Assembly (NCBI RefSeq): GCF_041765605.1
Contig: NZ_CP168900.1
Span: 512,001 to 576,000, forward strand
Direction: 5' to 3'
DNA length: 64,000 nucleotides
Origin: Listeria monocytogenes
Lineage (GTDB): Bacteria > Bacillota > Bacilli > Lactobacillales > Listeriaceae
The notes under the pieces are model-generated. The model searched no databases. It saw only the letters and a list, made by a program, of their open reading frames with translations, and was not told the origin of the DNA. This document shows positions 12,071-53,839 of this stretch, piece after piece; the stretch's first letter is position 1; each line of letters begins with the position of its first letter. Position numbers and translations under genes: made by a program.

Positions 12071-12148
12071 GCTATCTAAATTAATAGTCACATTGCTTTA
12101 GATGTAGGAACTATTTTATTCGTAAATAACATTAAAGGTGAAGCATTA

Positions 12149-12517
12149 ATGGAAATAAGTTATAAAGTTTTTGAGAAAAAAGGGTTTGGAAAAGTTCCGG
12201 TTATACACTTTTCAGGAGAACAATATACTGGATTGGGGGACTTGTTAAATATAGGTTTTTCATCAATTACGTTAGAGGATATTTTGGATAAAATTAATGA
12301 AATCGAAAATGGCGAAAGTGAGTTTGAGGAAATCGGAACAGAAAGAAGCATAGTAGAAATTCGGAAAAATGAATGTATGATTTATGACGCTTTCGATGGA
12401 CTGTTAGATGATGATGAGTTAAATCCAACAATAAATCTACCGACACTTGAGTTTAAAAAGATTGTTAGGGACTGGAAAGTGGAGAGAGACAAGCTTTTAA
12501 GCACAATAAAAAAATAA
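12149..12517 (+). CDS. Candidate third immunity protein
   Basis: 122 residues, acidic and soluble (MEISYKVFEKKGFGK ... DAFDGLLDDDELNP), with a good ribosome-binding site (aaaggtg). I cannot assign a family. Size, charge and position at the end of an LXG locus fit an orphan immunity gene, as is common in arrays that collect protection against several toxin variants. Confidence 0.45.
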   Translation: MEISYKVFEKKGFGKVPVIHFSGEQYTGLGDLLNIGFSSITLEDILDKINEIENGESEFEEIGTERSIVEIRKNECMIYDAFDGLLDDDELNPTINLPTLEFKKIVRDWKVERDKLLSTIKK

Positions 12518-15379: not shown

Positions 15380-17374
15380 ATGACAGATTATCCGAGTATT
15401 TTTGAACCATTAACTGTAAAAAGAATGACCATTAAAAACCGTGTGATAATGCCACCAATGGGGACAAACCTAGCTGGATTAAATGGCGAATTTTTAGAAG
15501 AACATATGAATTACTACGAACAACGCGCAAAAGGTGGAACAGGTCTAATCACTATTGAAAACGCTTGTGTAGATTTTCCTTATGGTACAAACGGAACAAC
15601 GCAACTTCGAATCGATAATGACCAATACATTCCTGGATTTTACAAATTAACAGAACGTCTTCATAAACATGGAACTTGTGTATCCATCCAAATCAACCAC
15701 GCTGGAGCATCTGCTTATCCAGCACGTTTGAATGGGCTTCAACCGGTTTCTGCATCAGATATTCCATCTAAAAAAGGTGGAACTGTACCGCGTCCGCTTA
15801 CAGTAGAAGAAATTTATGAAATCGTAAATAAATACGGTGATGCTGCAAGACGCGCCCAACAAGCCGGCTTCGATGCAGTCGAAATCCACGGCGGACACTC
15901 GTACTTACTATGCCAATTTTTATCGCCACTTTATAACAAACGAACAGATGAATTTGGTGGAACGCCTGAAAATCGCGCGCGTATCGTCAAATTAATTTTA
16001 GAAAAAGTTCGCGAGGAAGTCGGTCCATTTTTCCCAATCGTGCTGCGTTTTAGTGCAGATGAATTTACAGAAGGCGGCAACCACTTAGAAGATATTTTGG
16101 AACTACTAGATTATTGCCAAGAAGAAGCGGATATTTTGAATGTATCAGCGGCAATTAATGACAACCTATACTTGCAAATTGACCAAATGAACTTAGAAGA
16201 TGGCTGGAGAAGCTACCTTGCAAAAGCGGTGAAAGATAAATTTAACAAACCAACGATTACTTCCGGTAACATTCGTAGTCCAAAAGCGGCAGAGAAAATT
16301 TTGTCAGAAGGATATGCGGACTTGCTTGCGATGGGACGTGGCTTAATCGCTGAGCCTAACTGGGTAAACAAAGTGGCAACTGGCCAAGAAGACATGCTTC
16401 GAAAATGTATTTCTTGTAATATCGGTTGCGCGGATCACCGAATTTCCAAGTCGAAGCCAATCCGTTGTACGGTGAATCCAGATATTATTCATGAAGATAA
16501 ATACAAAGAAACAAAAGTAACTCGTCCGACCAATGTTGTCGTCATTGGCGGCGGAACAGCAGGGCTTGAAGCAGCTTGTACGGCGGCCGAAGTTGGCTGT
16601 AACACAACGCTAATTGAAGCGAGTGAACAAACTGGTGGCTTGGCGCGTGCCATTGCCAACCTTCCAGACAAAAGTAGAATTGCCGATTTCCCTAATTATT
16701 TAGCGAACCGAGCAGAAAAATTAACCAATTTAAAAGTTCTTACAGGCACTAAAGCTGATACTGCGCTTATTGATACATTTAATCCTGATGTGGTAGTCAA
16801 TGCCACAGGATCCAAACCATTACTTCCACCGATTAAAGGTTTGCATGACGTGATTGACAAAGAAGGCAGTAAGGTTCATTCGATTTTTGGACTTATTTCG
16901 AATATCGATGACTTTACCGAATTTAGTAACAAAAAAGTTGCAGTTATCGGCGGTGGTGCAGTTGGACTTGATGTGGTCGAGTACTTCTCAGAACGCGGCT
17001 CGGATGTTACAATTGTAGAAATGATGCCACTTCTTGGAAAAGACTTAGATATGATTACACGTCTTTCCATGATGGACATTATCGAGAAAAACAATGTTGA
17101 TGTCCAAACAGAAACTGCATTAACCGAAGTAGCAGCGGATCATTTCAAAGTGAAGCACGACGGAGTAGACGCCGAGATTCCATTTGATTACGGCTTTGTC
17201 TGCCTAGGAATGCGACCAGAACGCCCACTTATGGAAGAACTTGCGGCATACGGAAAAGAAAAACAAATTGAAATCGTAAATATTGGCGACAGCGCTGCAA
17301 CAAGAAAAATATTGGAAGGCGTTCGCGAAGGAAGAAATATTTTAACCACATTAGAAAAAATTGGCTCTTTGTAA
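15380..17374 (+). CDS. Old-yellow-enzyme/2,4-dienoyl-CoA reductase-type NADH:flavin oxidoreductase
   Basis: 664 residues. Residues 1-340 form the FMN TIM barrel (RVIMPPMGTNLA, INHAGASAYPA, VEIHGGHSYLLCQFLSP). The 4Fe-4S motif CISCNIGC plus a later cysteine 12 residues on lies near 345-365. Residues 385-660 bind FAD and NAD(P) through VVVIGGGTAGLEAA and VAVIGGGAVGLDV. The family reduces enoates or dienoyl-CoA. It is first in a probable aroE-aroD operon, so its substrate may be a cyclohexene carboxylate related to shikimate or quinate (inference). Confidence 0.88.
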   Translation: MTDYPSIFEPLTVKRMTIKNRVIMPPMGTNLAGLNGEFLEEHMNYYEQRAKGGTGLITIENACVDFPYGTNGTTQLRIDNDQYIPGFYKLTERLHKHGTCVSIQINHAGASAYPARLNGLQPVSASDIPSKKGGTVPRPLTVEEIYEIVNKYGDAARRAQQAGFDAVEIHGGHSYLLCQFLSPLYNKRTDEFGGTPENRARIVKLILEKVREEVGPFFPIVLRFSADEFTEGGNHLEDILELLDYCQEEADILNVSAAINDNLYLQIDQMNLEDGWRSYLAKAVKDKFNKPTITSGNIRSPKAAEKILSEGYADLLAMGRGLIAEPNWVNKVATGQEDMLRKCISCNIGCADHRISKSKPIRCTVNPDIIHEDKYKETKVTRPTNVVVIGGGTAGLEAACTAAEVGCNTTLIEASEQTGGLARAIANLPDKSRIADFPNYLANRAEKLTNLKVLTGTKADTALIDTFNPDVVVNATGSKPLLPPIKGLHDVIDKEGSKVHSIFGLISNIDDFTEFSNKKVAVIGGGAVGLDVVEYFSERGSDVTIVEMMPLLGKDLDMITRLSMMDIIEKNNVDVQTETALTEVAADHFKVKHDGVDAEIPFDYGFVCLGMRPERPLMEELAAYGKEKQIEIVNIGDSAATRKILEGVREGRNILTTLEKIGSL

Positions 17375-33224: not shown

Positions 33225-33447
33225 CTTGTTGCCTCCTCTTTTTCTGTTTGTTTCAATTTGAGTTTTACGTGCATATAAAACTCATTTTGTGTTGTTTCAA
33301 ATAGATTATATCAGCAATAGAAGGAAGATGCGAGGATGATATTTTTATCGTTAAGCTATGTAAAAACACATTTTATCTAACTATTTTTGCAGTTGCACAA
33401 ACCTTAGAATTCGGTCATAATAGAAAAAAATGACAGGAGCTGATAAA

Positions 33448-34128
33448 TTGATTATTGATGTATTGCAACATGTGCCGCACGAAGGACCTGGACTTATAGC
33501 GAATTGGGCGAGAGAAAACCAGCATCAGTTAAAAATACATTCTCTATTTGAAGAAAATGCTCATGTTCCAAATGACTCGGATTTTTTAATTGTACTTGGA
33601 GGACCCATGGGAATAAATGATACAGCCGAATTTCCGTGGTTAAAAGACGAACGTAAGCTAATCAAGCGATTAAGTGAACAGCATAAACCTGTTTTTGGTG
33701 TCTGCCTAGGTGCACAACAAATCGCAGCAACATTCGGAAGCGAAATCACTGTAAATAAAGAAAAAGAAGTAGGCTGGTTTCCTGTCAAAAGTACTTCCGA
33801 TAAACTATCATTTTTCCCAGAATCATTAAATGTGTTTCACTGGCATCAAGATACGTTTGCGTTACCAGCTGGCGCCACGCGTTTATTTGCTAGTGAGGGT
33901 TGTTTGAACCAAGCTTTTTTGTACGGTGAAAATATTATCGGTTTACAGTTTCATTTTGAAATGGAAAAAGCGGGAATTGAGACGATTTTGCAAATTGATG
34001 AGGCGTTTATCACATCTGGAAAATATGTTCAAAGCGTGGAAGTGATGCGAGAGAAGGATGTTCCAGAAGATAATAAACAAATGCTTGAGGCTATTTTAGA
34101 TTATTTAATAAATCCAAAAACCATCTGA
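33448..34128 (+). CDS. Class I glutamine amidotransferase-like protein
   Basis: 226 residues from TTG 33448, 8 bases after aggag; the in-frame ATG at 33430 overlaps that site. It is of the GMP-synthase amidotransferase type: oxyanion motif LGGPMGIND (about residue 53), nucleophile elbow GVCLGAQQIA (about 85) and catalytic histidine in LQFHFEME (about 170). It has no synthetase domain, so it works alone or with a partner; glutamine hydrolysis or another C26-like reaction is possible. Confidence 0.87.
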   Translation: MIIDVLQHVPHEGPGLIANWARENQHQLKIHSLFEENAHVPNDSDFLIVLGGPMGINDTAEFPWLKDERKLIKRLSEQHKPVFGVCLGAQQIAATFGSEITVNKEKEVGWFPVKSTSDKLSFFPESLNVFHWHQDTFALPAGATRLFASEGCLNQAFLYGENIIGLQFHFEMEKAGIETILQIDEAFITSGKYVQSVEVMREKDVPEDNKQMLEAILDYLINPKTI

Positions 34129-34150
34129 CGAGAAAGTCAGATGGTTTTTT
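34116..34150. terminator. Bidirectional terminator between amidotransferase and Lin0512 genes
   Basis: AAAAACCATCTGAC pairs with GTCAGATGGTTTTT around a 6-base loop. It overlaps the last codons of the amidotransferase gene and serves both convergent genes. Confidence 0.85.
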
Positions 34151-34152
34151 CT

Positions 34153-34515
34153 TTAGTATCCAGTTTCAACAGAAGCGTTGACGATATACATTAAATCGTT
34201 CTTGTCTTCTTTGTCTTCTAAGAAAATGCCGCTTGTAGTCATCATTCCGCCAGCAATTTTCTCAATAGTTACAGTGCCATAAGGGATAATCGCGCGAATG
34301 GCATCCTCATCAAGTTTATCCGCATCACACGGTAGCGCCAATTTGATATTAACAACCATATTTTGTAAGTCGCCGTCTGGAAGAAGCCCTTGAATACCGG
34401 GCATAGAGTTAGTGAAAATTGCATTTCTTACAGCTCGTTCGGCTGCTTTTGTAATATTTTGGCCGTGAACATCAACGCCAAAGCCAGTTTGGATAAATAG
34501 AATTTGTTCCATCAT
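34153..34515 (-). CDS. Lin0512-family protein
   Basis: 120 residues, the Lin0512 family (named from a Listeria member): GFGVDVHGQNITKAAERAVRNAI and DGDLQNMVVNIKLALPCDADKLDEDA, then PYGTVTIEKIAGGMMTTSGIF. It is a small alpha-beta protein of unknown function, cotranscribed with the MarR gene 3 bases upstream. Confidence 0.88.
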   Translation of the reverse strand: MMEQILFIQTGFGVDVHGQNITKAAERAVRNAIFTNSMPGIQGLLPDGDLQNMVVNIKLALPCDADKLDEDAIRAIIPYGTVTIEKIAGGMMTTSGIFLEDKEDKNDLMYIVNASVETGY

Positions 34516-34518
34516 AAA

Positions 34519-34977
34519 TCACTCCTTAAAATCTTTTATTAAAGCGGCGCCCGGTCGGTTTTTCGCATATCCTTCCATAACTTCGGTGAAATGTAATCCG
34601 TCAGTATCGGAGGAATTCGCGAATATTTCTGCCATTTGCTTACGTTGTGCGGCACCGAGTTCGTTTTCTAATTCTTTGCCGGCTGTAGTTAGGAAGATGC
34701 AGCGTTGGCGTTTGTCGCGTCTACCTTGCTCGATCGTGAGAAGTTCGCGCTCTTTCAGTTCAGCGAGCGGCTGGTGTAGGGCTTGTTTTGATATTTCTAA
34801 AAAAGTTAAAAGTTCATTAATTGTAAGTCCAGGCATCCGCGCCGTGAAAAATAAAATACGATGATGCAATCTTTTGAGTGAATGTTTGGCAATAATCAAA
34901 TCAGCGGTCTCTGTAAATGCTTTATAGCCGAAATAAAATAAAGCGATTTGTTGATTCATGTTTTGCTCATTGTTCAT
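34519..34977 (-). CDS. MarR-family transcriptional regulator
   Basis: 152 residues. A winged helix with MPGLTINELLTFLEISKQALHQPLAELKERELLTIEQGRRDKRQRC (about residues 48-92, core only) includes the wing. It is followed on the same strand by the Lin0512 gene, its likely target operon. An AT-rich TGTCAATATCAACA at 34995-35008 near its start is a possible operator. Confidence 0.88.
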   Translation of the reverse strand: MNNEQNMNQQIALFYFGYKAFTETADLIIAKHSLKRLHHRILFFTARMPGLTINELLTFLEISKQALHQPLAELKERELLTIEQGRRDKRQRCIFLTTAGKELENELGAAQRKQMAEIFANSSDTDGLHFTEVMEGYAKNRPGAALIKDFKE

Positions 34978-35357
34978 AAATATACCCCTTTTTCTGTCAA
35001 TATCAACAGTATAGCATAAAAAGAGGAGAGGAATAGCGGTTAACGTACCACTTTTTTTGCTAGAATTTTAAGTGTAAAATGATAAATTTTTAAATAAAAT
35101 AATATCGTTAAGTTTAATTTTAGTATTTCAAAACGCTTATTTGTGTACAAAATGTTACGTTAATGCAATTTTCAATCTTTTTATTTTTCGTAATTAAAGC
35201 GTTTTCTTTGTTGGTTTAATGCTATTCTTGTCAAAAGTAAACAGAATAATATGAATTTTAACGCAAATCAAACGTGAATTATATTACGAAAACGTATTGA
35301 GAGTTGAATTTTATGACGTTATACTTTGGAAGAAATCAACCACTAAGGAGAATGTAA
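34978..35357 (+). promoter_or_regulatory. Intergenic region between MarR and internalin genes, with promoter at 35297-35325
   Basis: 380 AT-rich bases. An imperfect palindrome, TGTCAATATCAACA (34995-35008, 10 of 14 symmetric), could bind the MarR protein. For the internalin, TTGAGA (35297-35302) and TATACT (35320-35325) are 17 bases apart, with the start codon 32 bases on. I see no ORF, terminator or RNA structure in the rest. Confidence 0.55.
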
Positions 35358-40314: not shown

Positions 40315-40496
40315 GTCTAATTTTGATAAAAATAATAAAATGTGAAAATTTTATTCCGGGAAGAAAAGTGAAAAAAATAAAGAAATACATTGTTGAATGT
40401 TCAAAATAACACGAACTATCGAAAATCCTTTGTTTGCAATTGATTTGGACGTTTTTTTATGTTAGATTTAATTCATGGAATGGAGGTGGAGACACA
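40315..40496 (+). promoter_or_regulatory. Intergenic region before cas6, with candidate cas promoter
   Basis: 182 AT-rich bases. TTGATT (40440-40445) and TAGATT (40463-40468), 17 bases apart, are the best candidate for the cas operon promoter; TTGCAA/TATGTT with 18 bases is an alternative. A strong ribosome-binding site ggaggtggag precedes cas6. I see no operator. Confidence 0.5.
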
Positions 40497-41219
40497 ATGA
40501 GATTAAAGATAAATTGTGATTTTGATTCTAAAATAATCCCAAAAGATTTCCAAAGTAAAGTTGTTAGTCTATTCAAAGCAGGAATTATGAAATCGAGTCC
40601 AGAGAGATATGAGAATTTATTTGGCGGGAATAAGCATAAGCAATATACATTTTCAGTGTACCTTCCCAAACCTCAAAATAAAGGTGCAGAAATTCAGTTA
40701 AATGAAGCAAATTGTATTATTAATTTTTCAACGGGAGATGCGGAAACGGGAATCATTTTTTATAATGCATTGATGAGTTTGAGAGGTAGCAAAGTTTTAT
40801 TTGGAGCTGGGAATCATATTACGGTAAAAAACATTCAAATAGTCCCGGAGAAAAAAATTATCGGCAAACGAACAGTTTTGAGAACGCTTTCACCTGTGGT
40901 TAGTAGAGATCATAATAGAGAAACATTCAAGAATTGGTTTTACAGTTTTGAGGATGAGGAATTTGAGCCAACTTTGAAAAGAAACATGTTGCCTTATTTA
41001 ATAGATGCATTTGGTGAGCAAGCTCGTTATGATTTGGAGAAATTGAAAATAACACCAATTTCGATGAAGAAAGTAGTCGTTTATTGCCACGAGATACATA
41101 TTGAAAGCTCAGTTGGGATTTTTGAATTGGAGGCTGAGGCTTATTTGCAGAAGTATTTGGTGGAGAATGGGCTTGGGACGATGACGGGATCAGGGTTTGG
41201 TATGATAGAGCAGCTTTAG
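40497..41219 (+). CDS. cas6: CRISPR RNA endoribonuclease Cas6 (type I-B)
   Basis: 240 residues from ATG 40497; an in-frame TTG at 40434 has no ribosome-binding site. It cuts pre-crRNA within repeats. The C-terminal glycine-rich loop GLGTMTGSGFGMIEQL is the Cas6 hallmark, and the N-terminal half has a RAMP-like ferredoxin fold (MRLKINCDFDSK). It would process transcripts from the array at 47572 and possibly rliB, whose repeats differ at four positions. Confidence 0.92.
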   Translation: MRLKINCDFDSKIIPKDFQSKVVSLFKAGIMKSSPERYENLFGGNKHKQYTFSVYLPKPQNKGAEIQLNEANCIINFSTGDAETGIIFYNALMSLRGSKVLFGAGNHITVKNIQIVPEKKIIGKRTVLRTLSPVVSRDHNRETFKNWFYSFEDEEFEPTLKRNMLPYLIDAFGEQARYDLEKLKITPISMKKVVVYCHEIHIESSVGIFELEAEAYLQKYLVENGLGTMTGSGFGMIEQL

Positions 41220-41234: not shown

Positions 41235-42912
41235 ATGCAAACAGAAATTGAATTAAGGGCAGATGATTGGCTGATAAACGCAGGTTTAGTAGGATTTCTA
41301 AATATTGTTGGTAAAGAAAATGTAAGAATTAACGGGCAATCGATTTATTTTAAAGCTGATTTACTAGTAGGATTTGAAGATAAATATTTTAATTTTTTCA
41401 TTCAAGAGTACAAAGAAACATTGGCTTGGTTTAAAATTGTTTCTTATAAAGATACAATGGAACGATTTAGAGCGGAAGACTTTGCTTCTTTTGATGAAAA
41501 AGCATTAAATGATTTGAATAAGTATATGAAAGATGTTGTTAAATTTTATTTAAAGAAGTCTAACTATATTAAGGTATTTTCGTTAATTGATGCAAAAGCT
41601 AATGTTACTAAATGGTTAGAAAATTTAAATGCAATTAATCTAACTAAAAAGCAACAATGGGAAGATGTGAAAGTTGATATAGTTGAAAAAGTGAAGCGAA
41701 ATTATATTCAGCTAGACTTTATTATCGATTTTTGTTTAGGTGAAAAGGGCCTTAAGTACCTTGGGGCAAAGAATCTGATTTATTCCGTTATCAATAAAGG
41801 ATGGACGGGTACGTCTTTTCTGTATACAAAAACAAAATTTGCTGATCCTTATTTAGATTACAAGACTAGTTTTTTGGATCCGGTATTAGATTATGTGGAT
41901 TCAGATTTATCTAAAGCAAAATATAATTGTTTCAATTGTAATCTGCCTATCAAAAATCTGAAAACAGGGCTTAGTTTTATGAATGATATTGGTTTTGATA
42001 TAGAGAAGAAAACTTCGCACGTATGGGATTTTAACAATGATGTTGCGACTTGCCCGATTTGTCGTTTGATTTATTCATGTGTTCCAGCTGGATTTACGTA
42101 TGTGTACGGAGAAGGTATGTTTGTCAACGATTCATATGGAGTAGAAGAATTACACCGTGTTAATGAACGTATGCGGAATTCTATCCTGCGCTTTAACCAA
42201 GATGGAATTAATTCAACTAATACTTACCGAGCACTTGTAGAGTCTATTACGATGGAGCATGAAAATAATCGTCGCTATGAACTTGCAGACATTCAGTTAG
42301 TTAGATACGAAAATGAGCACTATCGTTTTAATTTACTTTCTAAAAAAATGTTGCATATTGTAAATGATTCAAAGGGAATATTGAAAAGTTTAATTCGCTG
42401 TGGTTATAAAGAAGGTAATTTGAATGTTAATTTGTACAAAGAAGTTATTCAGCATTTAATGAACAATGAAAATTTATTTACGCTTATTCATAAATTAATC
42501 TACTATAAACAAACTAGTGTAAATGGTTTGTATTACAATATGGGACATGTTTCAGGGATTTTAGATATAAATACAAAATTTTTGAAGGAGATGGAAGTGA
42601 TGACAAATATTTCTCAAAATCAATTATGGTTCGTTCAAAATTGTGGAAAGGAATTTAAGGAAGGTTATGTTAAGAAGAAGTCAGAAAATAAAATTTCGGG
42701 AATAACATACAAATTATTAAATTCGTTAAAGGTCAATGATAAAGATGGATTTATGGATACTTTATTGAATAGTTATTCCTATTTATCTATGCCCATTCCA
42801 GATGTATTCATAAAAATGTTTTCGAATAATGAAGCTTTTAAATCAGTAGGTTATGCATTTATGCTTGGAGTAGGTGGAGAGAAAACTAAAAAAGAAAACG
42901 GGGGAAACACAG

Positions 42913-42923
<11 letters not shown>
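41235..42923 (+). CDS. cas8b: Cas8b (Cst1-type) large Cascade subunit
   Basis: 562 residues. The large subunit of type I-B Cascade recognises the PAM. Of the Cst1/CXXC-CXXC type: a zinc-finger-like segment YNCFNCNLPI near residue 232 and CPICRLIYSC near residue 273. It is the second gene of the operon, 15 bases after cas6, and overlaps cas7 by 11 bases. Confidence 0.88.
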
Positions 42924-44542
<1,619 letters not shown>

Positions 44543-44609: not shown

Positions 44610-46793
44610 ATGCATAAATATTTAGCGAAATCTAATCCAGAAGAAACAATTCAAGAACATACGGATAATTTATTAAAAAACTATCAAAGACTAAAAAAAC
44701 TATACCCAGCTGTGGAAATAGATTGGTATTTACTAGAATTAGTTTGTTTACTACATGATTTAGGGAAAATGAATCTATTGTTCCAAACGAAATTAGGTAA
44801 TGCTTCTGGTAAAGGTAAAGAAATTCCGCATGGTTATTTGTCTGTTGCATTTGTTCCAGATAGTAAACTTGAAGAAATGGGATACTCGGAGGATGAAATT
44901 AAAGTTGTTTATCAAGCGGTTGCGCGACATCATGAAAGGAAATATGATTTTTCTGATTCAGAGTGGAAAAATGAAATTATTAGATTAGAAGAGCAGTGGG
45001 AGGGTTTTAATTACAGTCAGCTAGGAGAAAATGCGGAATATAGTAGTGAGGTAGAAATGTTGTACTTCTACCCAGGATCCCGAATTTTCGAAGGTAACTC
45101 CGTAGCGGACACAGAAACATTCAAAAAATACGTTCTACTAAAAGGCTTACTCAATCGGATTGACTTTGCAGCGAGTGGGGGAATTGATGTAGAACTTGAG
45201 AATGACTTTTTGATAGATTCGATGGATGTGCAACTAGCTCATTTTAAAGCAGAAAATCCAGAAGCTGATTGGAATGCTTTGCAAAAATATATGATGCAGC
45301 ACCAAAATGAAAATATTGTCGTTATTGCTGAAACTGGCATGGGGAAAACGGAGGCAGGGCTGCTTTGGCTTGGGAATAATAAAGGTTTTTTCACGCTACC
45401 ATTGCGGGCAGCAATCAATGCAATTTATGAGCGAATCACAAAAAATATTGTTACGACCAATCAAGCCGAGCGAGTGGGTTTACTTCATTCGGAAACATAT
45501 AGTCAGTATTTGCTGCATGAAGGAAATGCGGAGATGGATATTGATGAATATTATACGAGGACGAGGCAAATGTCTTTACCTATAACTATTTGCACGCTCG
45601 ATCAATTGTTTGATTTTGTCTTTCGTTATGCAGGTTTTGAGCATAAATTAGCCACTTTATCTTATTCCAAAGTGATTATTGATGAAATCCAGATGTACTC
45701 ACCCGACTTACTGGCTTATTTGATTTTAGGGTTATCTTATATTGATAAATTTGGTGGGAAGTTCTGCATTATGACGGCGACTTTACCGGGAATAGTGACA
45801 GATTTACTTTTAGAAAATGGAGTGGATTTTGTCCAACCAGAAGAGAAATTTGTATCGTCGCGAATTCGCCACAGCATGGAGATGGTTCATACAGAGATTG
45901 AAAGCGAATTTATTAAACCATTTTTTAACAATAATCGAATTTTAGTTATTTGTAACACTATTAGTAAAGCGAAAAAAATCTATTCGGAGTTAAAAGATCA
46001 TTTTCAAGGTGAAGAAATTCATCTCATTCACAGCCAATTTATTAAAAGAGACCGTTCAGCTAAAGAAAAAGCAATTTTTAAAGATGGGCAAAAAGACAGT
46101 ACGAAAAAATGTATTTGGGTGGCAACGCAAGTCGTGGAGGCTTCTTTGGATATTGATTTTGATTTACTGTTCACGGAGTTGTCGGATGTGAATGGGCTGT
46201 TTCAGCGGATGGGCAGATGCTATCGAAACCGGGCACTGGATGTGGATACGAATGTCTATGTTTTTGATGGTGGGGCAAAAGTTTGTTCAGGTGTAGGAAT
46301 TTTTATTGATAAGTTAATATTTGAAAATTCTAAGGCGATTTTGAATGAACACGCTGGAGTTTTGACAGAAGAGAAGAAAATGGAGCTGGTGGAGCAAGTT
46401 TATTCAGCAGAGGCTTTACGTGGGAGTGAGTTTTATAACGATTTGATAGGAACGATAAACTACGTGAAAGCTTTTGATAGTTATGAATTGGATAAAGCGG
46501 AAGTTCGTATGAGATTTAGAAACATTAATTCGGTTTCTGTTATTCCAGAAGAAGTTTGGCAAGATAATGTGGAAGAAATCAATTCTTATTTTGTTACTCT
46601 TCGTAAAACCTCTAAGGAAATATCAACAAAAGAGAAAATGATTGCAAGAACCAATTTAGCTGAATTTATGGTGAGTGTTCCTGACTATCTTTACAAAAAA
46701 GGTGAGAGCGTTGTACGTGAAATAAACCGTTATGAGAGTGTTATTGAGTTTAAATGTGGTTATTCGAGTGATGTAGGGGTTTTTATGAGGTGA
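44610..46793 (+). CDS. cas3: Cas3 helicase-nuclease (type I-B)
   Basis: 727 residues from ATG 44610, after aaaggg; an in-frame 28-codon extension lacks a ribosome-binding site. HD nuclease: His17, LLHDLGK (His49-Asp50) and VARHHERKYDF (about 108). Superfamily-2 helicase: Walker A ETGMGKTEAG near residue 240 and DEIQ near residue 362 in place of DEAD; QRMGRCYRN near residue 535 is motif VI. It is recruited by Cascade to degrade target DNA. The end (CGYSSDVGVFMR) lies at the junction with the cas1 remnant, so a few C-terminal residues may be missing. Confidence 0.92.
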   Translation: MHKYLAKSNPEETIQEHTDNLLKNYQRLKKLYPAVEIDWYLLELVCLLHDLGKMNLLFQTKLGNASGKGKEIPHGYLSVAFVPDSKLEEMGYSEDEIKVVYQAVARHHERKYDFSDSEWKNEIIRLEEQWEGFNYSQLGENAEYSSEVEMLYFYPGSRIFEGNSVADTETFKKYVLLKGLLNRIDFAASGGIDVELENDFLIDSMDVQLAHFKAENPEADWNALQKYMMQHQNENIVVIAETGMGKTEAGLLWLGNNKGFFTLPLRAAINAIYERITKNIVTTNQAERVGLLHSETYSQYLLHEGNAEMDIDEYYTRTRQMSLPITICTLDQLFDFVFRYAGFEHKLATLSYSKVIIDEIQMYSPDLLAYLILGLSYIDKFGGKFCIMTATLPGIVTDLLLENGVDFVQPEEKFVSSRIRHSMEMVHTEIESEFIKPFFNNNRILVICNTISKAKKIYSELKDHFQGEEIHLIHSQFIKRDRSAKEKAIFKDGQKDSTKKCIWVATQVVEASLDIDFDLLFTELSDVNGLFQRMGRCYRNRALDVDTNVYVFDGGAKVCSGVGIFIDKLIFENSKAILNEHAGVLTEEKKMELVEQVYSAEALRGSEFYNDLIGTINYVKAFDSYELDKAEVRMRFRNINSVSVIPEEVWQDNVEEINSYFVTLRKTSKEISTKEKMIARTNLAEFMVSVPDYLYKKGESVVREINRYESVIEFKCGYSSDVGVFMR

Positions 46794-47091
46794 GCTCTCT
46801 ATAACAGAGATTTTCAAACCACTAATTGCTGATCGGATTATTTTTAGTTTGTTAAACAAAAATATTATTACCGAAGATGACTTTGAAAAAGAGGCTAACT
46901 TTTGCTATATGAAAAAAGCAGCTCGACAAAAGGTATTACAAGCGTATGATTTACGGATGAAGGAAACAATTAAACACCGGGATTTAGGAAGAAATGTATC
47001 TTATCGGCATTTAATTCGCTTAGAATGTTATAAATTAGTAAAGCATTTGATGAATGATAAAGAATACGAAGCATTTAAAATTTGGTGGTGA
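46789..47091 (+). pseudogene. cas1: cas1 C-terminal remnant (cas4 absent)
   Basis: About 100 codons are open from 46789, right after the end of cas3. ITEIFKPLIADRIIFSLL ... HRDLGRNVSYRHLIRLECYKL match the last third of type I-B Cas1. The preceding two thirds, including the metal-binding Glu and His, are missing, and the position of the catalytic Asp (usually LDLxE) reads LSITE. No cas4 lies between cas3 and this remnant. A possible TTG start at 46849 would give only 80 residues. Without Cas1 catalytic residues, integration of new spacers should not be possible in cis. Confidence 0.88.
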
Positions 47092-47095
47092 AGAT

Positions 47096-47374
47096 ATGTA
47101 TGTAATTTTAATTTATGATATTTCAATCGAAAATGGTGGAGCAAAAGTCTGGAGAAATGTATTTAAGATTTGTAAAAAGTACTTAACTCATGTTCAAAAA
47201 TCAGTTTTTGAAGGTGAAATAACTCCAGCACTTTTAGTTAAGTTAAGGATGGAGTTAGATAAGTATATTCGAGATGATCAAGATTCAGTAATTGTTTTTT
47301 CTAGTAGACAACAAAGATGGCTAGAAAAAGAATTTTGGGGATTAACGGATGAAAAGACTTCTAATTTCTTTTGA
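47096..47374 (+). CDS. cas2: Cas2
   Basis: 92 residues, intact: MYVILIYDISIENGGAKVWRNVFKICKKYLTHVQKSVFEGE (first part, quoted by core). The N-terminal beta-strand with YD and the LTHVQKSVFEG strand are the Cas2 ferredoxin fold. It partners Cas1 in integration, but Cas1 is decayed here. It ends 10 bases before the leader's first inverted repeat. Confidence 0.92.
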   Translation: MYVILIYDISIENGGAKVWRNVFKICKKYLTHVQKSVFEGEITPALLVKLRMELDKYIRDDQDSVIVFSSRQQRWLEKEFWGLTDEKTSNFF

Positions 47375-47571
47375 TGTTCTCGGTCTGTCGACCTCTAATA
47401 GCGTAAAATATAGTGGGGTTCGACAGATTTAGGGAAATCATTGGGGTAGAATGTCTTTAAAGGTTTTTAGCAAAAATCCGAAGGGATAAGTTATGATTTT
47501 CACCCGATTTTTAAGAGGTCGACAAATATAGTACCCTGAGTTATGATGGGAGTAGGCAGAAAATAGAGCGG
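47375..47571 (+). promoter_or_regulatory. Leader of the main CRISPR array
   Basis: 197 bases related to the rliB leader. The 44-base block 47384-47427 has the same inverted ends (TCTGTCG, CGACAGA). The promoter is TCGACA 47519-47524, 17-base spacer, TATGAT 47542-47547, followed by GGGAGTA and AGCGG before the first repeat. The leader is thus on the left and the array is read rightward. Confidence 0.85.
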
Positions 47572-49346
47572 GTTTTAACTACTTATTATGAAATGTAAAT
47601 TTTTTTTGGCTTTTTCTTTAGACACTTTTAACTTGTTTTAACTACTTATTATGAAATGTAAATTTGTTTGGAAAACGTGCGCGCCAGCCTTCTTTTTTGT
47701 TTTAACTACTTATTATGAAATGTAAATTGTATTCTTATAATGAGCTTTGCAAAATGGTTCCCCGTTTTAACTACTTATTATGAAATGTAAATTCACCAAT
47801 TCATGTCCTACTAGCTTCGGACGTTTCATGTTTTAACTACTTATTATGAAATGTAAATACGGTTGAATAAAACGAATAATAAACTGCATGTATGTTTTAA
47901 CTACTTATTATGAAATGTAAATAAGCTAGTCGCGAACAATTAAGCGCGTTAGCCCCGTTTTAACTACTTATTATGAAATGTAAATCAACGCTTTTTATTG
48001 ATATGATACTATATGACATTAGTTTTAACTACTTATTATGAAATGTAAATTGCTTCTTGCTGTTCTTTCTCTTTTTTAAGATTTCATGTTTTAACTACTT
48101 ATTATGAAATGTAAATGTCTTTTAGCCTGCTTTTGGTTAAAGTGGGGTTGTCGTTTTAACTACTTATTATGAAATGTAAATTACTTAGCACCTACAAGAC
48201 TAGCATCACCCTGCGCAGTTTTAACTACTTATTATGAAATGTAAATATCTACAGAACTCTCCGACTCTTGCACTTCCGTGATAGTTTTAACTACTTATTA
48301 TGAAATGTAAATATTGGACCGGAAACTGCAGGCGACTTACTTAATTATCGTTTTAACTACTTATTATGAAATGTAAATACAGTCAAATGATGATGACCAA
48401 CTTCCTCTGCCAAAGGTTTTAACTACTTATTATGAAATGTAAATTACATTAGTGTATCGAAATCCGTATCGAAAATTTCTACGTTTTAACTACTTATTAT
48501 GAAATGTAAATAAAATTGATCATCAGGTAAACTAGCAACATCAAGTTGTTTTAACTACTTATTATGAAATGTAAATGGAAACGCCGTCTTCCGTCGTTCT
48601 AAATTTAAAACTGTTTTAACTACTTATTATGAAATGTAAATTATAAATTAAGGATAAGGAGTGTTTTTGGATGGCGTTTTAACTACTTATTATGAAATGT
48701 AAATCTTTCTGGAGCAACTTTTAAAGTGAAAGACAGTGAGTTTTAACTACTTATTATGAAATGTAAATTATCTTTATCTGTAGCTAGTTTGAAATCATCT
48801 TCATGTTTTAACTACTTATTATGAAATGTAAATGAAAGTAAAGAAATCAAGCCTAAATTTGTTTTCCGGTGTTTTAACTACTTATTATGAAATGTAAATG
48901 GTTTTAACTTCTAGGTTATTTTGTGCATTTTTTGGGTTTTAACTACTTATTATGAAATGTAAATTATTCTTTTAAAGTTGGCGGTAGTATGGTAACTAGT
49001 TTTAACTACTTATTATGAAATGTAAATATGTCTGCGTGCCCCAGTCTCTCTTGGATTACTTTGGTTTTAACTACTTATTATGAAATGTAAATTTTTCAAT
49101 GTGCGAGTATGCTCCTCTGGAAATTCCTGTTTTAACTACTTATTATGAAATGTAAATATCTTGAACCGCTCCCCATGCTTTTTTAGCGCCATCAGTTTTA
49201 ACTACTTATTATGAAATGTAAATTAACAATGAAAAACGGATTTACAAAATTAGCGTCCGTTTTAACTACTTATTATGAAATGTAAATACTAACAAAGCAC
49301 CTGTAAAAGCTAATGCAATCGGAGTTTTAACTACTTATTATGAAAT
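47572..49346 (+). CRISPR. Type I-B CRISPR array, 28 repeats and 27 spacers
   Basis: 27 full 29-base repeats (GTTTTAACTACTTATTATG followed by AAATGTAAAT) start at 47572, 47635, 47699, 47764, 47830, 47894, 47957, 48022, 48088, 48153, 48218, 48284, 48350, 48416, 48483, 48548, 48613, 48676, 48740, 48805, 48871, 48936, 48999, 49064, 49129, 49195 and 49259. A last copy at 49324-49346 keeps 23 bases and then diverges, marking the trailer end. Spacers are 34-38 bases and all different. Several translate into phage-like peptides, e.g. spacer 25 (reverse) DGAKKAWGAVQD. The leader promoter is at the left. Confidence 0.97.
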
Positions 49347-49381
49347 CATAAACTTCCTCTTATAATTTAAACCCCAAAAAT

Positions 49382-49793: not shown

Positions 49794-49865
49794 AAAAAAT
49801 CCCTCTTTTCTACTTCGAAGTATAGCATAGCTTGTAAATTTTTCGTAAAAATAGAGCTTGAAACG

Positions 49866-49922
49866 TTGACTTATTGGCGAAATCTCCGTAATATCAAACG
49901 TAGACTACTTAATTTTTAGTCT
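49866..49922 (+). promoter_or_regulatory. Promoter and palindromic operator of the MFS exporter
   Basis: TTGACT (49866-49871) and TAATAT (49889-49894) are 17 bases apart. AGACTA and TAGTCT, separated by 9 bases (49902-49922), lie at the predicted start site. A repressor bound here would block transcription. No TetR or MarR gene is next to it; the regulator is probably distant or is the downstream ROK protein. Confidence 0.6.
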
Positions 49923-49939
49923 GAAAAGGGGGAAACTAT

Positions 49940-51355
49940 ATGCAACAAGAAGCAACAGGTGGGCAGAAAATTCGGCCGATACCGATTATTGCCTCATTTT
50001 TGATGGCGGGGTTCATTGGGCTATTCAGTGAAACTGCTCTTAACATGGCGCTTAGTGATTTGATTCAGGTGTTTGATATTAGTTCAGCGACAGTGCAGTG
50101 GCTTACGACAGGTTATTTGCTAACGCTTGGAATATTAGTACCGATTTCGGGATTACTTTTACAATGGTTTACAACACGAGGATTATTTTTTACAGCAGTG
50201 AGTTTTTCGATTGCTGGTACGCTCATTGCGGCGCTTTCGCCAACGTTTGCAATGTTAATGATTGGGCGTGTAGTGCAAGCAGTAGGTACGGCGCTATTAC
50301 TACCGTTAATGTTTAACACGATTTTACTGATTTTCCCAGAGCATAAACGTGGCTCAGCAATGGGGATGATCGGGCTGGTAATTATGTTTGCACCAGCAGT
50401 TGGTCCGACGATTTCAGGACTTATTTTAGAAAACTTAACTTGGAACTGGATTTTCTGGATTTCCTTGCCATTCCTTATTATTGCGTTATTATTCGGAATG
50501 AAATTTATGCAAAATGTTTCGGTTGTTACGAAGCCGAAAATTGATATTTTATCGATTATTCTTTCGACGCTAGGTTTTGGTGGAGTCGTATTTGCCTTTA
50601 GTAGTGCGGGAGAAAATGGTTGGGGAAGCGCAACGGTATTAGTTTCAATTATCGTTGGCGGACTTGCGCTTGGACTCTTTGTTTGGCGCCAACTAACAAT
50701 GGAAAAACCTTTGATGGACTTGAAAGTATTTAAATACCCAATGTTCACATTAGGACTTATTTTAGTATTTATCAGCTTTATGATGATTCTTTCAACGATG
50801 ATTTTACTACCGCTTTACTTGCAAAATAGTTTAGCGCTCGCAGCATTTTCAGCGGGATTAGTATTACTTCCGGGTGGGGTGCTGAATGGTTTAATGTCAC
50901 CATTTACTGGGCGTTTGTTCGATGCATACGGTCCACGCGCACTTGTTATCCCAGGGTTTATCGTAGCAGTTGTGGCACTATTTTTCTTAACGAGAATAGA
51001 AGTTGGAACATCTGCATTAACCATCATCGTACTTCATTCGGTGTTAATGATTGGGATTTCGATGGTCATGATGCCGGCACAAACAAACGGATTAAACCAA
51101 TTGCCGCCAAAATTATATCCTGACGGCACGGCGATTATGAACACATTGCAACAAGTTTCCGGCGCGATTGGAACGGCTGTTGCGATTACGATCATGTCAG
51201 CTGGACAAAAAGCTTATATGGAAACGGCGCAAGGAGTAGGACCGGAGCAAATGGTTGCTTCACTGACAGCTGGAATTCAAAATGCCTTTGTCTTTGGACT
51301 GATTATGGCTTGTATTGGTCTTCTGTGCTCGTTATTTATTCGTAAAGCTAAATAA
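49940..51355 (+). CDS. MFS multidrug exporter, DHA2 (EmrB/QacA) family
   Basis: 471 residues with 14 transmembrane segments. The family signature ETALNMALSDLIQVFDISSATVQWLTTGYLL (core, about residues 25-55) is motif D1 and LGILVPISGLL follows; motif A-like GRVVQAVGTALLLPL near residue 110. The length fits DHA2 exporters. Drug or toxic compound efflux by proton antiport. Confidence 0.88.
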   Translation: MQQEATGGQKIRPIPIIASFLMAGFIGLFSETALNMALSDLIQVFDISSATVQWLTTGYLLTLGILVPISGLLLQWFTTRGLFFTAVSFSIAGTLIAALSPTFAMLMIGRVVQAVGTALLLPLMFNTILLIFPEHKRGSAMGMIGLVIMFAPAVGPTISGLILENLTWNWIFWISLPFLIIALLFGMKFMQNVSVVTKPKIDILSIILSTLGFGGVVFAFSSAGENGWGSATVLVSIIVGGLALGLFVWRQLTMEKPLMDLKVFKYPMFTLGLILVFISFMMILSTMILLPLYLQNSLALAAFSAGLVLLPGGVLNGLMSPFTGRLFDAYGPRALVIPGFIVAVVALFFLTRIEVGTSALTIIVLHSVLMIGISMVMMPAQTNGLNQLPPKLYPDGTAIMNTLQQVSGAIGTAVAITIMSAGQKAYMETAQGVGPEQMVASLTAGIQNAFVFGLIMACIGLLCSLFIRKAK

Positions 51356-51365
51356 TAAAGTGAAG

Positions 51366-51396
51366 AGAACTTCTCGTAATGAGAGGTTCTTTTTTT
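51366..51396 (+). terminator. Terminator after the MFS gene
   Basis: AGAACTTCTC pairs over ten positions with GAGAGGTTCT (one wobble) around GTAAT and is followed by six T. Confidence 0.85.
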
Positions 51397-51399
51397 GTT

Positions 51400-51465
51400 T
51401 TGACAAATGGGTTCTGAGTGGTTAAAATGATAGTGAATATAGTTTATAAAGTTTGTTTATTAACT
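51400..51465 (+). promoter_or_regulatory. Promoter and ROK-type operator upstream of the ROK regulator
   Basis: TTGACA (51400-51405) and TAAAAT (51423-51428) are 17 bases apart. AGTTTATAAA and GTTTATTAACT (51441-51465) form an imperfect inverted repeat with 9 of 11 bases symmetric. This resembles XylR/ROK operators, so autoregulation is likely. Confidence 0.65.
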
Positions 51466-51486
51466 TTACGAATGGAGCGGTTGATG

Positions 51487-52491
51487 ATGGCAATTCCTCG
51501 TGATTTAAAAGAATTGAATAAGAAAAATATCAAGTCGATTTTACGGCAACAAGGTGCGATGACGAAAGCGGAAATCGCCGAAGTGACTGGTCTTAGTGTA
51601 GTTACAGTGAATAAGCTGATTCGTGATTTAGTGGAAAATGAAGAGATTTTAGAACAAGATAATTCGGTTGCGACTGGCGGAAGAAGAGCTGTTTCGTATG
51701 AAATTAATCCTAATTTTCAGCAGGTGTTGGTTATTAGTTTGCAAGAAAAGTGGAAGAAAATTACTTATTCTTTTTCGGTCTATAATTTGCTTGGTGAGCC
51801 GGAGTTTGTGGAGGATATGTCTGGGGAGGATTTGGATATTACTGCGCTGAAACGGAATACGAAAGATCTTGTTTGCGCTTTTCCGAAGATTTCTTGTGTT
51901 GTAATCGGGGTGCCGGGAATTGAAATAGGCGGTAAGCTACGTGCGATGGACTTTCCGCTACTTTTAAATGTGCAATTGCGGGAGACTTTGGAGGCGGAAG
52001 TGAATTTGCCGGTGTTGGTTGAGACGGATACGAATGCGGCGATTTTAGGGTATAAAAATCGGCCGGTTAAAGAGGAGAATATCGTTGGACTTTATTATCC
52101 GGAGCGTTTTCCACCTGGTGCGGGGCTTTTGATGAACGGAGAGATTTTGAAAGGTCAAAATGGGCTGGCAGGGGAGATTAAGCATATGCCGCTTCAAGTG
52201 GACTGGGATAACTTTGATTTTTCGGTCGATGAAATTAAAGCGCACATTCGTAAAATGGTGCTGCTCACGATGAGTTTTTATGATCCGGAAACGATTGTGC
52301 TCTATACGAATTTTTATTTTGGGCAGAAGGACTTCACCGAGGAACTGACGGAAGAGTTAAAGCAAGTTTATCCATATGCGGTTTTGCCGGAGATTGTGTT
52401 GTCGCGTAAGTTTACGACGGATTATCGGATTGGGCTTTTGGCGTTTGGGATTGATTATTTGGAGAATAATATGACGGATTGGCGGATATAA
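51487..52491 (+). CDS. ROK-family transcriptional regulator
   Basis: 334 residues from ATG 51487 (ATG 51484 also possible), after ggag; an upstream frame has no ribosome-binding site. Winged helix-turn-helix with AEIAEVTGLSVVTVNKLIRDLVE, then a ROK sugar-kinase-like domain: VVIGVPGIE (about residue 138), ETDTNAAILGY (about 178) and GQNGLAGEIKHM (about 221). Of the sugar-binding ROK repressors. It precedes a GH4 gene, so it may sense a beta-glucoside or its phosphate. Confidence 0.87.
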   Translation: MAIPRDLKELNKKNIKSILRQQGAMTKAEIAEVTGLSVVTVNKLIRDLVENEEILEQDNSVATGGRRAVSYEINPNFQQVLVISLQEKWKKITYSFSVYNLLGEPEFVEDMSGEDLDITALKRNTKDLVCAFPKISCVVIGVPGIEIGGKLRAMDFPLLLNVQLRETLEAEVNLPVLVETDTNAAILGYKNRPVKEENIVGLYYPERFPPGAGLLMNGEILKGQNGLAGEIKHMPLQVDWDNFDFSVDEIKAHIRKMVLLTMSFYDPETIVLYTNFYFGQKDFTEELTEELKQVYPYAVLPEIVLSRKFTTDYRIGLLAFGIDYLENNMTDWRI

Positions 52492-52520
52492 AAAAAGAGC
52501 CCTTTGACAGGCTCTTTTTT
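52491..52520. terminator. Bidirectional terminator between ROK and GH4 genes
   Basis: AAAAAAGAGCC pairs with GGCTCTTTTTT, with 7 bases between. It serves both convergent genes. Confidence 0.88.
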
Positions 52521-52522
52521 AC

Positions 52523-53839
52523 TTATTTAAAGAAATTCGGTAAATACTCTTTATGCGCTTCTAAAAGTTCGTCCAGCATTTCGCGGGCTACAGATTCGCT
52601 TGGAGTTAGTGGGTTGATTGTCATTGCAAGGAGTGCTTTGTCGTAATCACCAGTAACTGCTGCTTCGGCTGTTAGGCGCTCGAAAGTTTTGATTTCTTGG
52701 ATGATGCCGTTGATAGCGATTGGAAGGCGTCCGCTTGCTAGTGGAATTGGGCCTTGGCGAGTGATGACACAGTTTGTTTCTACTGCGGAATCAGGGTCGA
52801 TATCAAGGATGGCACCATTGTTACGAGTATTAACGATTTGAATGTCGCGTTTGTCGTTGTAGATAGAGTTAATTAGGTTACATGCTGCTTCACTGTAGTA
52901 AGCGCCGCCGCGTTGTTCTAATTGTTTTGGTTTTTCAGCAAGTTCTTCTTGTTTGTAAAGCTCAAAAAGTTCAGCTTCTACTTTTTTAACAACTTCTGCA
53001 CGAGTACCATGTTCTGCGTATGCGCGAGCTTGGTCTTCCAGTTGTTGTTTTGTTTGCCAGTAGTAGCGCAAGTAGTCGATTGGAATCATGTTTAGTGTAC
53101 GTAAGAACGTTTTGTCCCAACCAGTTGCGTTGATGTTCTTAAGGCTTGAGCCAGCTTCATCTTCTGTCATTTTGAAAACAACATCTTTTGTTACGTCTTT
53201 GCCATTATGATAAACAGTTTTCGCGAATACCATGTGATTTAGACCAACGAATTCTACATAAATTTCAGAAACGTCTACGCCAAGAGTTTCTGCGATATTG
53301 CGTTCGATGCCGATAGGGCCGTTACATAAGCCGACAACTTTCTTTTGGTTACTGTAACGAAGAACTGCTTCTGTTACCATTCCTGCAGGGTTAGCAAAGT
53401 TGATTAACCAAGCATCTGGGCAAAGGCGTTCCATGTCTTTACAAATATCTAAAATAACTGGGATTGTGCGAAGTCCTTTGAACATGCCGCCTGGTCCGTT
53501 TGTTTCTTGACCAACAACGCCATATGAATTCGGAATGCGCTCATCTTTCACACGTGCATCTAGTAAACCTACACGTAATTGTGTTGTTACGAAATCTGCC
53601 CCTTTTAAAGCTTCTTCACGGTCTAGTGTTAAATGTACTTCCATGTCAACGCCAGCTTTTTCTACCATACGTTTTGCTAAATTACCAACGATTTCTAATT
53701 TTTCACGGCCAGCTTCTACGTCGACTAACCATAGTTCACGAACTGGTAATTCGTCTTGACGTTTAATAAATCCTTCGATTAGTTCAGGTGTATAACTTGA
53801 TCCGCCACCAATAGTTGCGATTTTAATACCTTTAGTCAT
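52523..53839 (-). CDS. 6-phospho-beta-glucosidase, GH4 family
   Basis: 438 residues. GH4 enzymes use NAD and a metal to cleave 6-phospho-glycosides. NAD motif IATIGGGSSYTPEL at the start; metal ligands Cys in GLCNGPIG (about residue 172) and His in FVGLNHMVF (about 202); NFANPAGMVTEAV near 147. Convergent with the ROK gene. No PTS permease adjoins, so the substrate is imported elsewhere. A cellobiose- or arbutin-type phosphate is likely. Confidence 0.92.
   Translation of the reverse strand: MTKGIKIATIGGGSSYTPELIEGFIKRQDELPVRELWLVDVEAGREKLEIVGNLAKRMVEKAGVDMEVHLTLDREEALKGADFVTTQLRVGLLDARVKDERIPNSYGVVGQETNGPGGMFKGLRTIPVILDICKDMERLCPDAWLINFANPAGMVTEAVLRYSNQKKVVGLCNGPIGIERNIAETLGVDVSEIYVEFVGLNHMVFAKTVYHNGKDVTKDVVFKMTEDEAGSSLKNINATGWDKTFLRTLNMIPIDYLRYYWQTKQQLEDQARAYAEHGTRAEVVKKVEAELFELYKQEELAEKPKQLEQRGGAYYSEAACNLINSIYNDKRDIQIVNTRNNGAILDIDPDSAVETNCVITRQGPIPLASGRLPIAINGIIQEIKTFERLTAEAAVTGDYDKALLAMTINPLTPSESVAREMLDELLEAHKEYLPNFFK

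What the first reader, a model, noticed from the sequence alone, without database searches (positions are those of the whole stretch)
46789..47374. Adaptation module is gutted: cas4 absent, cas1 reduced to its C-terminal third, cas2 intact
Right after cas3 the sequence changes frame into the last ~100 residues of Cas1; the catalytic Glu and His are gone and the expected Asp reads Ser. This looks like one deletion from the end of cas3 through cas4 and two thirds of cas1. Spacer acquisition in cis should be impossible, so the 27 spacers would be a frozen record. Retention of cas2 and of an almost perfect array raises the question of what remains selected.
Basis: partly seen in the sequence, partly recalled or inferred. 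Interest (0 to 1): 0.78.

Follow-up and report, generated by a model that had tools for sequence, protein, structure and literature searches.

The report
CRISPR locus that lost memory-writing genes
This Listeria CRISPR immune locus has lost the genes that write new memories, yet its stored memories look younger than that loss and were probably written in intact strains and brought in by recombination.

Summary
A 1,248-nt deletion takes the cas3 end, all of cas4 and the first 715 nt of the cas1 frame, leaving an 18-nt junction, a cas1 remnant without its Glu/His/Asp motifs, and an intact cas2. The 2.98-Mb genome has no other Cas1 or Cas4 match, so writing in cis should be impossible.

"Frozen since the deletion" does not hold. 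The same junction occurs in six of 25 Listeria genomes (own included) and in one unverified contig; the window shares no spacer with these or other loci compared. All 27 non-terminal repeats are perfect. Ten of 27 spacers mapped to phages, all ten beside 5'-CC(A/T). An intact allele exists in L. monocytogenes. Divergence jumps beside the array: window against L141, 1/283 in cas2 but 24/197 in the leader. Best reading: an old "cannot write" allele, frozen within clones, whose arrays arrive from intact strains by recombination.

Reading may also be impaired: cas5 has an in-frame stop, and five spacers match the own genome. Published gene lists already lack cas1/cas4; my eight paper searches showed no study of the junction or array age.

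The parts
40491..41219 (+). cas6 (Cas6b)
   Evidence: PADLOC Cas6b and NCBIfam TIGR01877; start codon chosen by me
41235..42923 (+). cas8b1/cst1
   Evidence: PADLOC Cas8b, NCBIfam TIGR01908
42916..43782 (+). cas7/cst2
   Evidence: NCBIfam TIGR02585
43763..44392 (+). cas5 (Cas5t/b), ended by an in-frame stop at 44390-44392; 49 more open codons follow in the same frame
   Evidence: 226 stop-to-stop codons here, 274-276 in the six other deletion loci and 276 in intact L144; NCBIfam TIGR01895 over its cut-off
44610..46793 (+). cas3 (HD nuclease and helicase), last ~10 codons replaced by the deletion junction
   Evidence: TIGR01587 and TIGR01596 over their cut-offs; 31 nt of the intact cas3 frame removed
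46787..46804 (+). deletion junction: 18 nt in place of 1,248 nt of the intact locus
   Evidence: BLAST boundaries against L144; 17 of 18 bases shared with L141 and with L. farberi
46805..47091 (+). cas1 3' remnant (C-terminal ~95 residues)
   Evidence: PF01867 positions 233-282 of 283; 92 residues identical to full-length Cas1 P0005 of L. monocytogenes
47096..47374 (+). cas2, intact (92 aa)
   Evidence: NCBIfam TIGR01573 over its cut-off
47375..47571 (+). leader; differs from all seven related leaders at 17 sites but keeps the motifs common to Listeria leaders
47572..49352 (+). CRISPR array: 27 spacers, 27 perfect 29-nt repeats and a degenerate terminal repeat

Best explanation
This is an old, single-origin, adaptation-dead allele of the Listeria type I-B locus. 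One deletion removed the cas3 tail, cas4 and the part of cas1 with the active site. Carriers cannot write spacers, so within a clone the array is frozen (inferred, with support from published strain comparisons). Over longer times intact cas4+cas1+ strains of the same group write PAM-selected spacers, and homologous recombination on the right side of the deletion (cas1 remnant, cas2, leader, array) puts such arrays onto deletion chromosomes. Shown: the deletion and its shared junction; no other Cas1 or Cas4 match in the genome; no shared spacers; perfect repeats; a uniform 5'-CC(A/T) flank; an intact allele in the species; two jumps in divergence next to the array. Inferred: that recombination carried the arrays, and that Cas4 made the flank uniform. 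In this strain interference is probably weak or lost as well (cas5 stop, spacers matching its own genome).
For: Junction shared by six of 25 genus genomes (own included) and by L141. Own genome: one Cas1 match (the remnant) and no Cas4 match; the same searches ring in 9 and 8 of 14 control genomes. No window spacer matches another of 368 spacers compared. 27 of 27 repeats perfect; at cas3 rates 15-26 substitutions expected if unconstrained. 10 of 10 mapped spacers beside CCA or CCT; the intact L144 shows 13 of 13 CCN, 11 of them distinct spacers. Intact allele: P0005, 92 C-terminal residues identical, and L144 as DNA. Window v. L141 (both deleted): cas2 1/283, leader 24/197, Fisher P 3e-9. L141 (deleted) v. 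L144 (intact): 16/287 left of the junction, 8/767 right of it, Fisher P 5e-5 (one search used 768, one base counted twice).
Against: Only one intact L. monocytogenes locus was available as DNA, and no block of neighbouring spacers shared between an intact and a deleted locus was seen; L141 and L144 share one identical spacer and one near-identical one, in different surroundings, which may be separate acquisitions. No donor of the window's leader was found among the fetched loci (best 88.8%), so fast local change is not excluded. The repeat clock weakens if repeats are strongly constrained (P 0.005-0.05 at 80% constraint). In L141, a deletion locus, 3 of 11 mapped spacers lack CCN, and in L. 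farberi 1 of 6. L141 comes from an unverified record.
Confidence: 0.6

Rival explanations
1. Writing in trans: an intact Cas4-Cas1 pair, present for a time on an introgressed or mobile copy, wrote spacers directly into the array of deletion strains together with the resident Cas2.
For: Accounts for conserved cas2, leader and repeats and for the uniform flank. Adaptation by cooperation between CRISPR types is published for loci that lack acquisition genes (PMC8092290, seen only as a listing with the start of its abstract).
Against: No Cas1 or Cas4 in the own genome now; G016 and G022 also have no other Cas1 match. No Listeria plasmid or phage source seen: the plasmid search with cas3-cas2 DNA hit one record, a misfiled chromosome, and the phage search with Cas1 gave only the remnant in two L. 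monocytogenes contigs and three distant hits. Does not by itself explain the jump at cas2/leader.
Confidence: 0.15
2. Frozen record: the array has been unchanged since the deletion, and the differences between species come from loss of different parts of one long ancestral array.
For: Within clones arrays look fixed in print: Kuenne 2013 (PMC3556495, section 9) and ST121 (PMC4412001 passages; PMC7986423 passages).
Against: No window spacer is shared with any other locus compared; 27 of 27 repeats are perfect although cas3 differs by 84/2182 from the other L. monocytogenes deletion locus; three mapped spacers match phages of public records perfectly.
Confidence: 0.07
3. The deletion, not the array, moves: short recombination tracts carried the deletion into loci that already had active, different arrays.
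For: Sequences next to the junction in L. cossartiae (G002) resemble the intact L144: 0/138 and 1/132 differences to the right. The locus is a mosaic of high and low identity.
Against: The junction bases themselves have diverged between the two groups of deletion loci and four carry an extra 20-nt loss, so transfer cannot be recent there. In the window the jump lies between cas2 and the leader, not at the junction.
Confidence: 0.13
4. The Cas1 remnant with Cas2 is itself a selected, working part, for example a regulator or a partner in an unusual acquisition route.
For: Private changes in the remnant on the seven deletion branches are 9 synonymous to 3 nonsynonymous, P 2e-4 to 9e-4; the window's own five are all synonymous.
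Against: Recombination with intact cas1 can give the same signal: L141's remnant differs from intact L144 at 1 of 287 bases. The first in-frame start is a TTG at 46849 and the first ATG is at 46909. Glu, His and Asp are gone. The 3' end probably also holds the ribosome site of cas2 (read by eye), which would constrain it.
Confidence: 0.03

Closest known systems
L. monocytogenes CRISPR locus 2 (type I-B, Tneap) of Kuenne 2013 (PMC3556495; section 9 read in full)
   Same: Same place and order; listed as cas6, cst1, cst2, cas5t, cas3 and cas2, without cas1 or cas4, in strains L99, SLCC2482 and SLCC2755; spacers identical in two of them and completely different in the third.
   Different: The section does not mention a cas1 remnant, the junction, its presence in other species or the age of the array, and counts the system as putatively functional.
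CRISPR-I of Sesto 2014 (PMC3886909; section 9 and passages read)
   Same: Same type I-B operon and position; near-identical repeat.
   Different: They list cas1 as part of the operon and cas4 only 'in some cases'; the published repeat differs at a few bases from the window's. Their tests concern interference, not acquisition.
ST121 type IB locus (PMC7986423 passages; PMC4412001 passages)
   Same: Listed with Cas6, Cas8, Cas7, Cas5, Cas3, Cas2 and no Cas4 or Cas1; arrays nearly constant in the clone.
   Different: No sequence of these isolates was compared here, so an identical junction is not shown for them. ST121 also has a type II-A locus, which this genome lacks by the Cas1 search.
RliB-CRISPR (locus 1)
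   Same: A Listeria array that cannot be extended by genes of its own; related repeat and leader; present in this window from 31541.
   Different: It has no cas genes at all, whereas this locus keeps effector genes, cas2 and a cas1 remnant.

Membership tests
Type I-B CRISPR-Cas (Tneap variant) | cas8b1/cst1, cas7/cst2, cas5t, cas3 and cas6 in one cluster beside an array | tested here: met
   Families and order; cas5 is cut short by a stop
Type I-B CRISPR-Cas (Tneap variant) | working interference | not testable with these tools
   cas5 stop and spacers matching the own genome speak against it
Complete adaptation module (cas4-cas1-cas2) | full-length Cas1 with its Glu, His and Asp motifs | tested here: not met
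   Remnant only
Complete adaptation module (cas4-cas1-cas2) | Cas4 in the locus or genome | tested here: not met
   PF01930 no match at E 0.001; tblastn of L144 Cas4 against the window no hit
Complete adaptation module (cas4-cas1-cas2) | Cas2 | tested here: met
   TIGR01573 over its cut-off
Allele shared with other Listeria deletion loci | same junction sequence | tested here: met
   Six genomes and L141
Array frozen since the deletion | spacers shared with other carriers of the deletion | tested here: not met
   No shared spacer at E 1e-4; the G016 array has gaps and gave only one readable spacer of this array
Array frozen within a clone | no leader-end gains among strains of one clone | not testable with these tools
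   No second strain of the window's clone was available; published ST121 data are consistent

The most novel reading that the evidence does not exclude
Listeria keeps two long-lived forms of the I-B locus: 'writers' (cas4+cas1+) and 'readers' (deleted). Readers avoid the cost of acquiring spacers against themselves and take ready-made memory from writers by recombination across strains and species, so that the deletion allele is maintained by selection instead of merely decaying.
Probability: 0.2. Interest if true: 0.78.

Novelty: new member of a known kind. Interest (0 to 1): 0.5.

Why it matters
CRISPR arrays are often read as a record of what their own host met. Here an array looks younger than the loss of the genes needed to write it, in a genome with no other copy of them, so it was probably written elsewhere or with outside help. 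A deletion shared across species, an intact allele in L. monocytogenes and many sequenced strains (recalled) make it directly testable how memory reaches strains that cannot write it. It also warns against using these arrays as clonal history without checking cas1, and against taking a conserved cas2 or clean repeats as proof that a system is active.

Tried and rejected
A second cas1 or cas4 elsewhere in the genome: not found. Independent deletions in each species: rejected for the seven loci, because the junction bases are shared. G008 looks like an independent loss: its remnant joins residues 36-70 and 245-333 of Cas1, and no Cas4 is found in the stretch held. Selection on the cas1 remnant after the deletion: a signal exists but is confounded by recombination with intact alleles, so I do not claim it. 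In one search cas3 was compared from its 3' end without gaps; the cas3 values for G016, G002 and G022 are spoiled by indels and not used. Leader decay through loss of function: not favoured, because the other deletion loci keep the leader. A count of the window's private leader bases against those of other leaders was planned and not run. Structure prediction, the third protein search and the RNA tools were not used.

Paper searches: eight. In the listings, passages and sections I saw, none treats the shared junction or the age of the array. Most subscription papers are not held. Two sources do not fit neatly: PMC3886909 lists cas1 in the operon generally, and PMC8921925 (passages) lists one strain with cas3, cas1, cas2 and no cas4; an annotated remnant could explain both, which I did not check.

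Full report
WHAT IS THERE. The window is bases 512001-576000 of a single 2,979,728-bp contig. It most likely comes from L. monocytogenes: it is 96-99% identical to L. monocytogenes FDAARGOS_57 (L144) at window 33400-34999, where three other Listeria species are 82-91% identical, and 98-99.5% at 49800-52599. Names of relatives rest on contig lengths: G002 L. cossartiae, G005 L. farberi, G010 L. ilorinensis. G016 differs by 100 bases from the L. marthii FSL S4-120 record, so I call it marthii-like. The locus runs cas6, cas8b1, cas7, cas5, cas3, cas1 remnant, cas2, leader, array: type I-B of the Tneap kind.

THE DELETION. L144 has cas4 (15829-16320) and a 333-codon cas1 frame (16321-17322). Its bases 15788-17035 (1,248 nt) are replaced by 18 nt at window 46787-46804. 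Gone are 31 nt of the cas3 frame, all of cas4 and 715 nt (238 codons) of cas1. The GIEGN and YLHS motifs are absent and the Asp of LD(V/I)AEIF reads Ser; that these are the active-site residues is recalled. The remnant is the only Cas1 match in the genome, and no Cas4 matches; the same searches ring in 9 and 8 of 14 control genomes.

IT IS OLD AND SHARED. Of 25 genomes of the genus, six including the own one carry the remnant with the same junction: G000, G002, G003, G005, G016, G022. So does L141, an unverified contig labelled as phage that is colinear with the window's chromosome over 18 kb; L142 is identical to it over its 15,140 bases and not counted again. Four of the seven carry a further 20-nt loss next to the junction. 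G010, G015 and G020 have full-length cas1 at the locus. G008 shows what looks like an independent loss. Three of the six genomes (G000, G016, G022) have no other Cas1 match; G016 is 83% complete. Synonymous divergence of the remnant between the window and the other five is 0.10-0.22.

THE ARRAY IS YOUNG. No window spacer matches another of 368 spacers from 17 stretches, the window's own 32 (27 here, 5 RliB) included, at E 1e-4. The terminal repeat and the flank behind it are orthologous. Perfect non-terminal repeats: 27 of 27 in the window, 33 of 35 in L141, 15 of 17 in G005, 23 of 26 in G002, 18 of 19 in G003, 25 of 25 in G022, 1 of 2 readable in G016, and 28 of 28 in the intact L144. At cas3 rates 15-26 substitutions would be expected in the window's 783 repeat sites if unconstrained (P 3e-7 or less); with 80% constraint P is 0.005-0.05. 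The clock supports renewal but does not prove it alone.

WHO WROTE IT. I fetched 12 of the 63 phage-collection records that matched the array. Ten of the 27 spacers map to them with 0-4 mismatches, three without any, and all ten have a 5' flank of CCA (9) or CCT (1); chance for a CC at ten of ten is about 6e-16. The intact L144 shows CCN for 13 of 13 (11 distinct spacers). Other deletion loci: G002 7 of 7, G003 3 of 3, G022 4 of 4, G005 5 of 6, L141 8 of 11. RliB arrays of four genomes: 7 of 10. The phages were chosen by hits of the window's array, so coverage of the others is partial. Cas4 is implicated in selecting and processing prespacers (PMC6519985, start of abstract in the listing); that the uniform flank here needed Cas4 is inference.

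HOW IT CAN BE YOUNG. Intact alleles exist in L. monocytogenes. P0005 (330 aa; cluster of 617 member sequences as printed; named L. monocytogenes) is identical to the window's remnant over 92 C-terminal residues, and L144 is intact as DNA. Divergence jumps beside the array. Window against L141, both deleted: 10/287 left of the junction, 1/18 in it, 9/287 in the remnant, 1/283 in cas2, then 24/197 in the leader (Fisher cas2 v. leader P 3e-9). L141 (deleted) against L144 (intact): 16/287 on the left, but 1/287, 5/283 and 2/197 to the right (P 5e-5) (one base was counted twice there and is corrected here). The window has 17 leader sites that none of seven relatives share, against one such site in cas2, yet keeps the motifs common to Listeria leaders. 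The simplest account is that recombination replaces the right side of the locus, array included. A transferred block of spacers was not caught: only one intact L. monocytogenes locus was at hand, and it shares with L141 one identical and one near-identical spacer in different surroundings.

SHORT-TERM FREEZING FITS PRINT. Kuenne 2013 (PMC3556495, section 9 read) lists locus 2 without cas1 and cas4, with identical spacers in two strains and completely different ones in a third. PMC7986423 (passages) lists ST121 without Cas4 and Cas1, with a 35-spacer array in 8 of 9 isolates and 46 in one, and ST155 and ST619 with both genes and variable arrays. PMC4412001 (passages) finds the ST121 CRISPR regions overall identical. 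The missing genes are thus known from gene lists; the shared junction and the age mismatch I did not see in print (eight searches, named in Tried and rejected).

DOES THIS STRAIN STILL READ ITS MEMORY? cas5 has an in-frame stop at 44390-44392, with 49 open codons behind it; the six other deletion loci and L144 have longer open frames. The lost part lies beyond what Pfam matches even in an intact relative, so loss of function is likely but not shown. Five of 27 spacers match the own genome: spacer 11 perfectly at 80464-80500 but beside CTT; spacers 19 and 24 with 2 mismatches beside CCT and CCA; spacer 3 with 3 distal mismatches beside CCG; spacer 13 with 5 beside CCA. A sixth short BLAST match (109184) did not extend to a spacer with 8 or fewer mismatches. 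This suggests that interference is off, inhibited or escaped, without deciding which.

WHAT REMAINS SELECTED. Private changes in the remnant on the seven deletion branches are 9 synonymous to 3 nonsynonymous (P 2e-4 to 9e-4). Because the remnant recombines with intact cas1 (L141 v. L144, 1/287), this cannot be read as selection on the deleted gene. For cas2 the same count is 3 to 1 (P 0.05-0.07).

VERDICT. Observation confirmed. The deletion and the loss of writing in cis are supported; 'frozen record' is at most true within clones. The locus is of a known kind, a CRISPR-Cas with a lost adaptation module. The mismatch between an old deletion and young arrays is the part worth following.

Noticed in passing
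window 44390-44392: In-frame stop in cas5; the six other deletion loci and the intact L. monocytogenes locus have longer open frames, so the effector may be failing in this strain.
   Followed up: partly
own genome C1:80464-80500, 102973-103008, 1227195-1227231, 1267301-1267336, 2706710-2706745: Five of the 27 spacers match the strain's own chromosome, one perfectly but beside CTT, four with 2-5 mismatches beside CCN. Whether these places are prophages was not checked.
   Followed up: partly
window 48769-48804 (spacer 19): This type I-B spacer matches, with 2 mismatches, the gene annotated as anti-CRISPR AcrIIA2 in phage A118 and a place in the own genome.
   Followed up: no
window 47375-47571: The leader has 17 bases that none of seven related leaders share; no closer source among the fetched loci.
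   Followed up: partly
L055 (G008:C9) 11924-12322: An apparently independent loss of cas4 and the core of cas1 in another Listeria genome, with a regular short array and cas2 kept.
   Followed up: partly
L049 472-507 and L144 18609-18644: The same 36-nt spacer sits in the RliB array of one species and in the type I-B array of L. monocytogenes; Kuenne 2013 saw no identical spacers in multiple arrays among its strains.
   Followed up: no
L144 17897-19290: A block of six spacers is present twice in the array of the intact locus.
   Followed up: no
OR846720.1, OR848150.1 and NZ_CP030101.1: Two records labelled as Listeria phage hold bacterial chromosome with a CRISPR locus, and a 2.9-Mb L. monocytogenes chromosome is filed as a plasmid.
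   Followed up: yes
window from 31541 (RliB array): The window's RliB array has a different repeat and spacers from those of the related genomes; some of their RliB spacers also lie beside CCN in phages.
   Followed up: no
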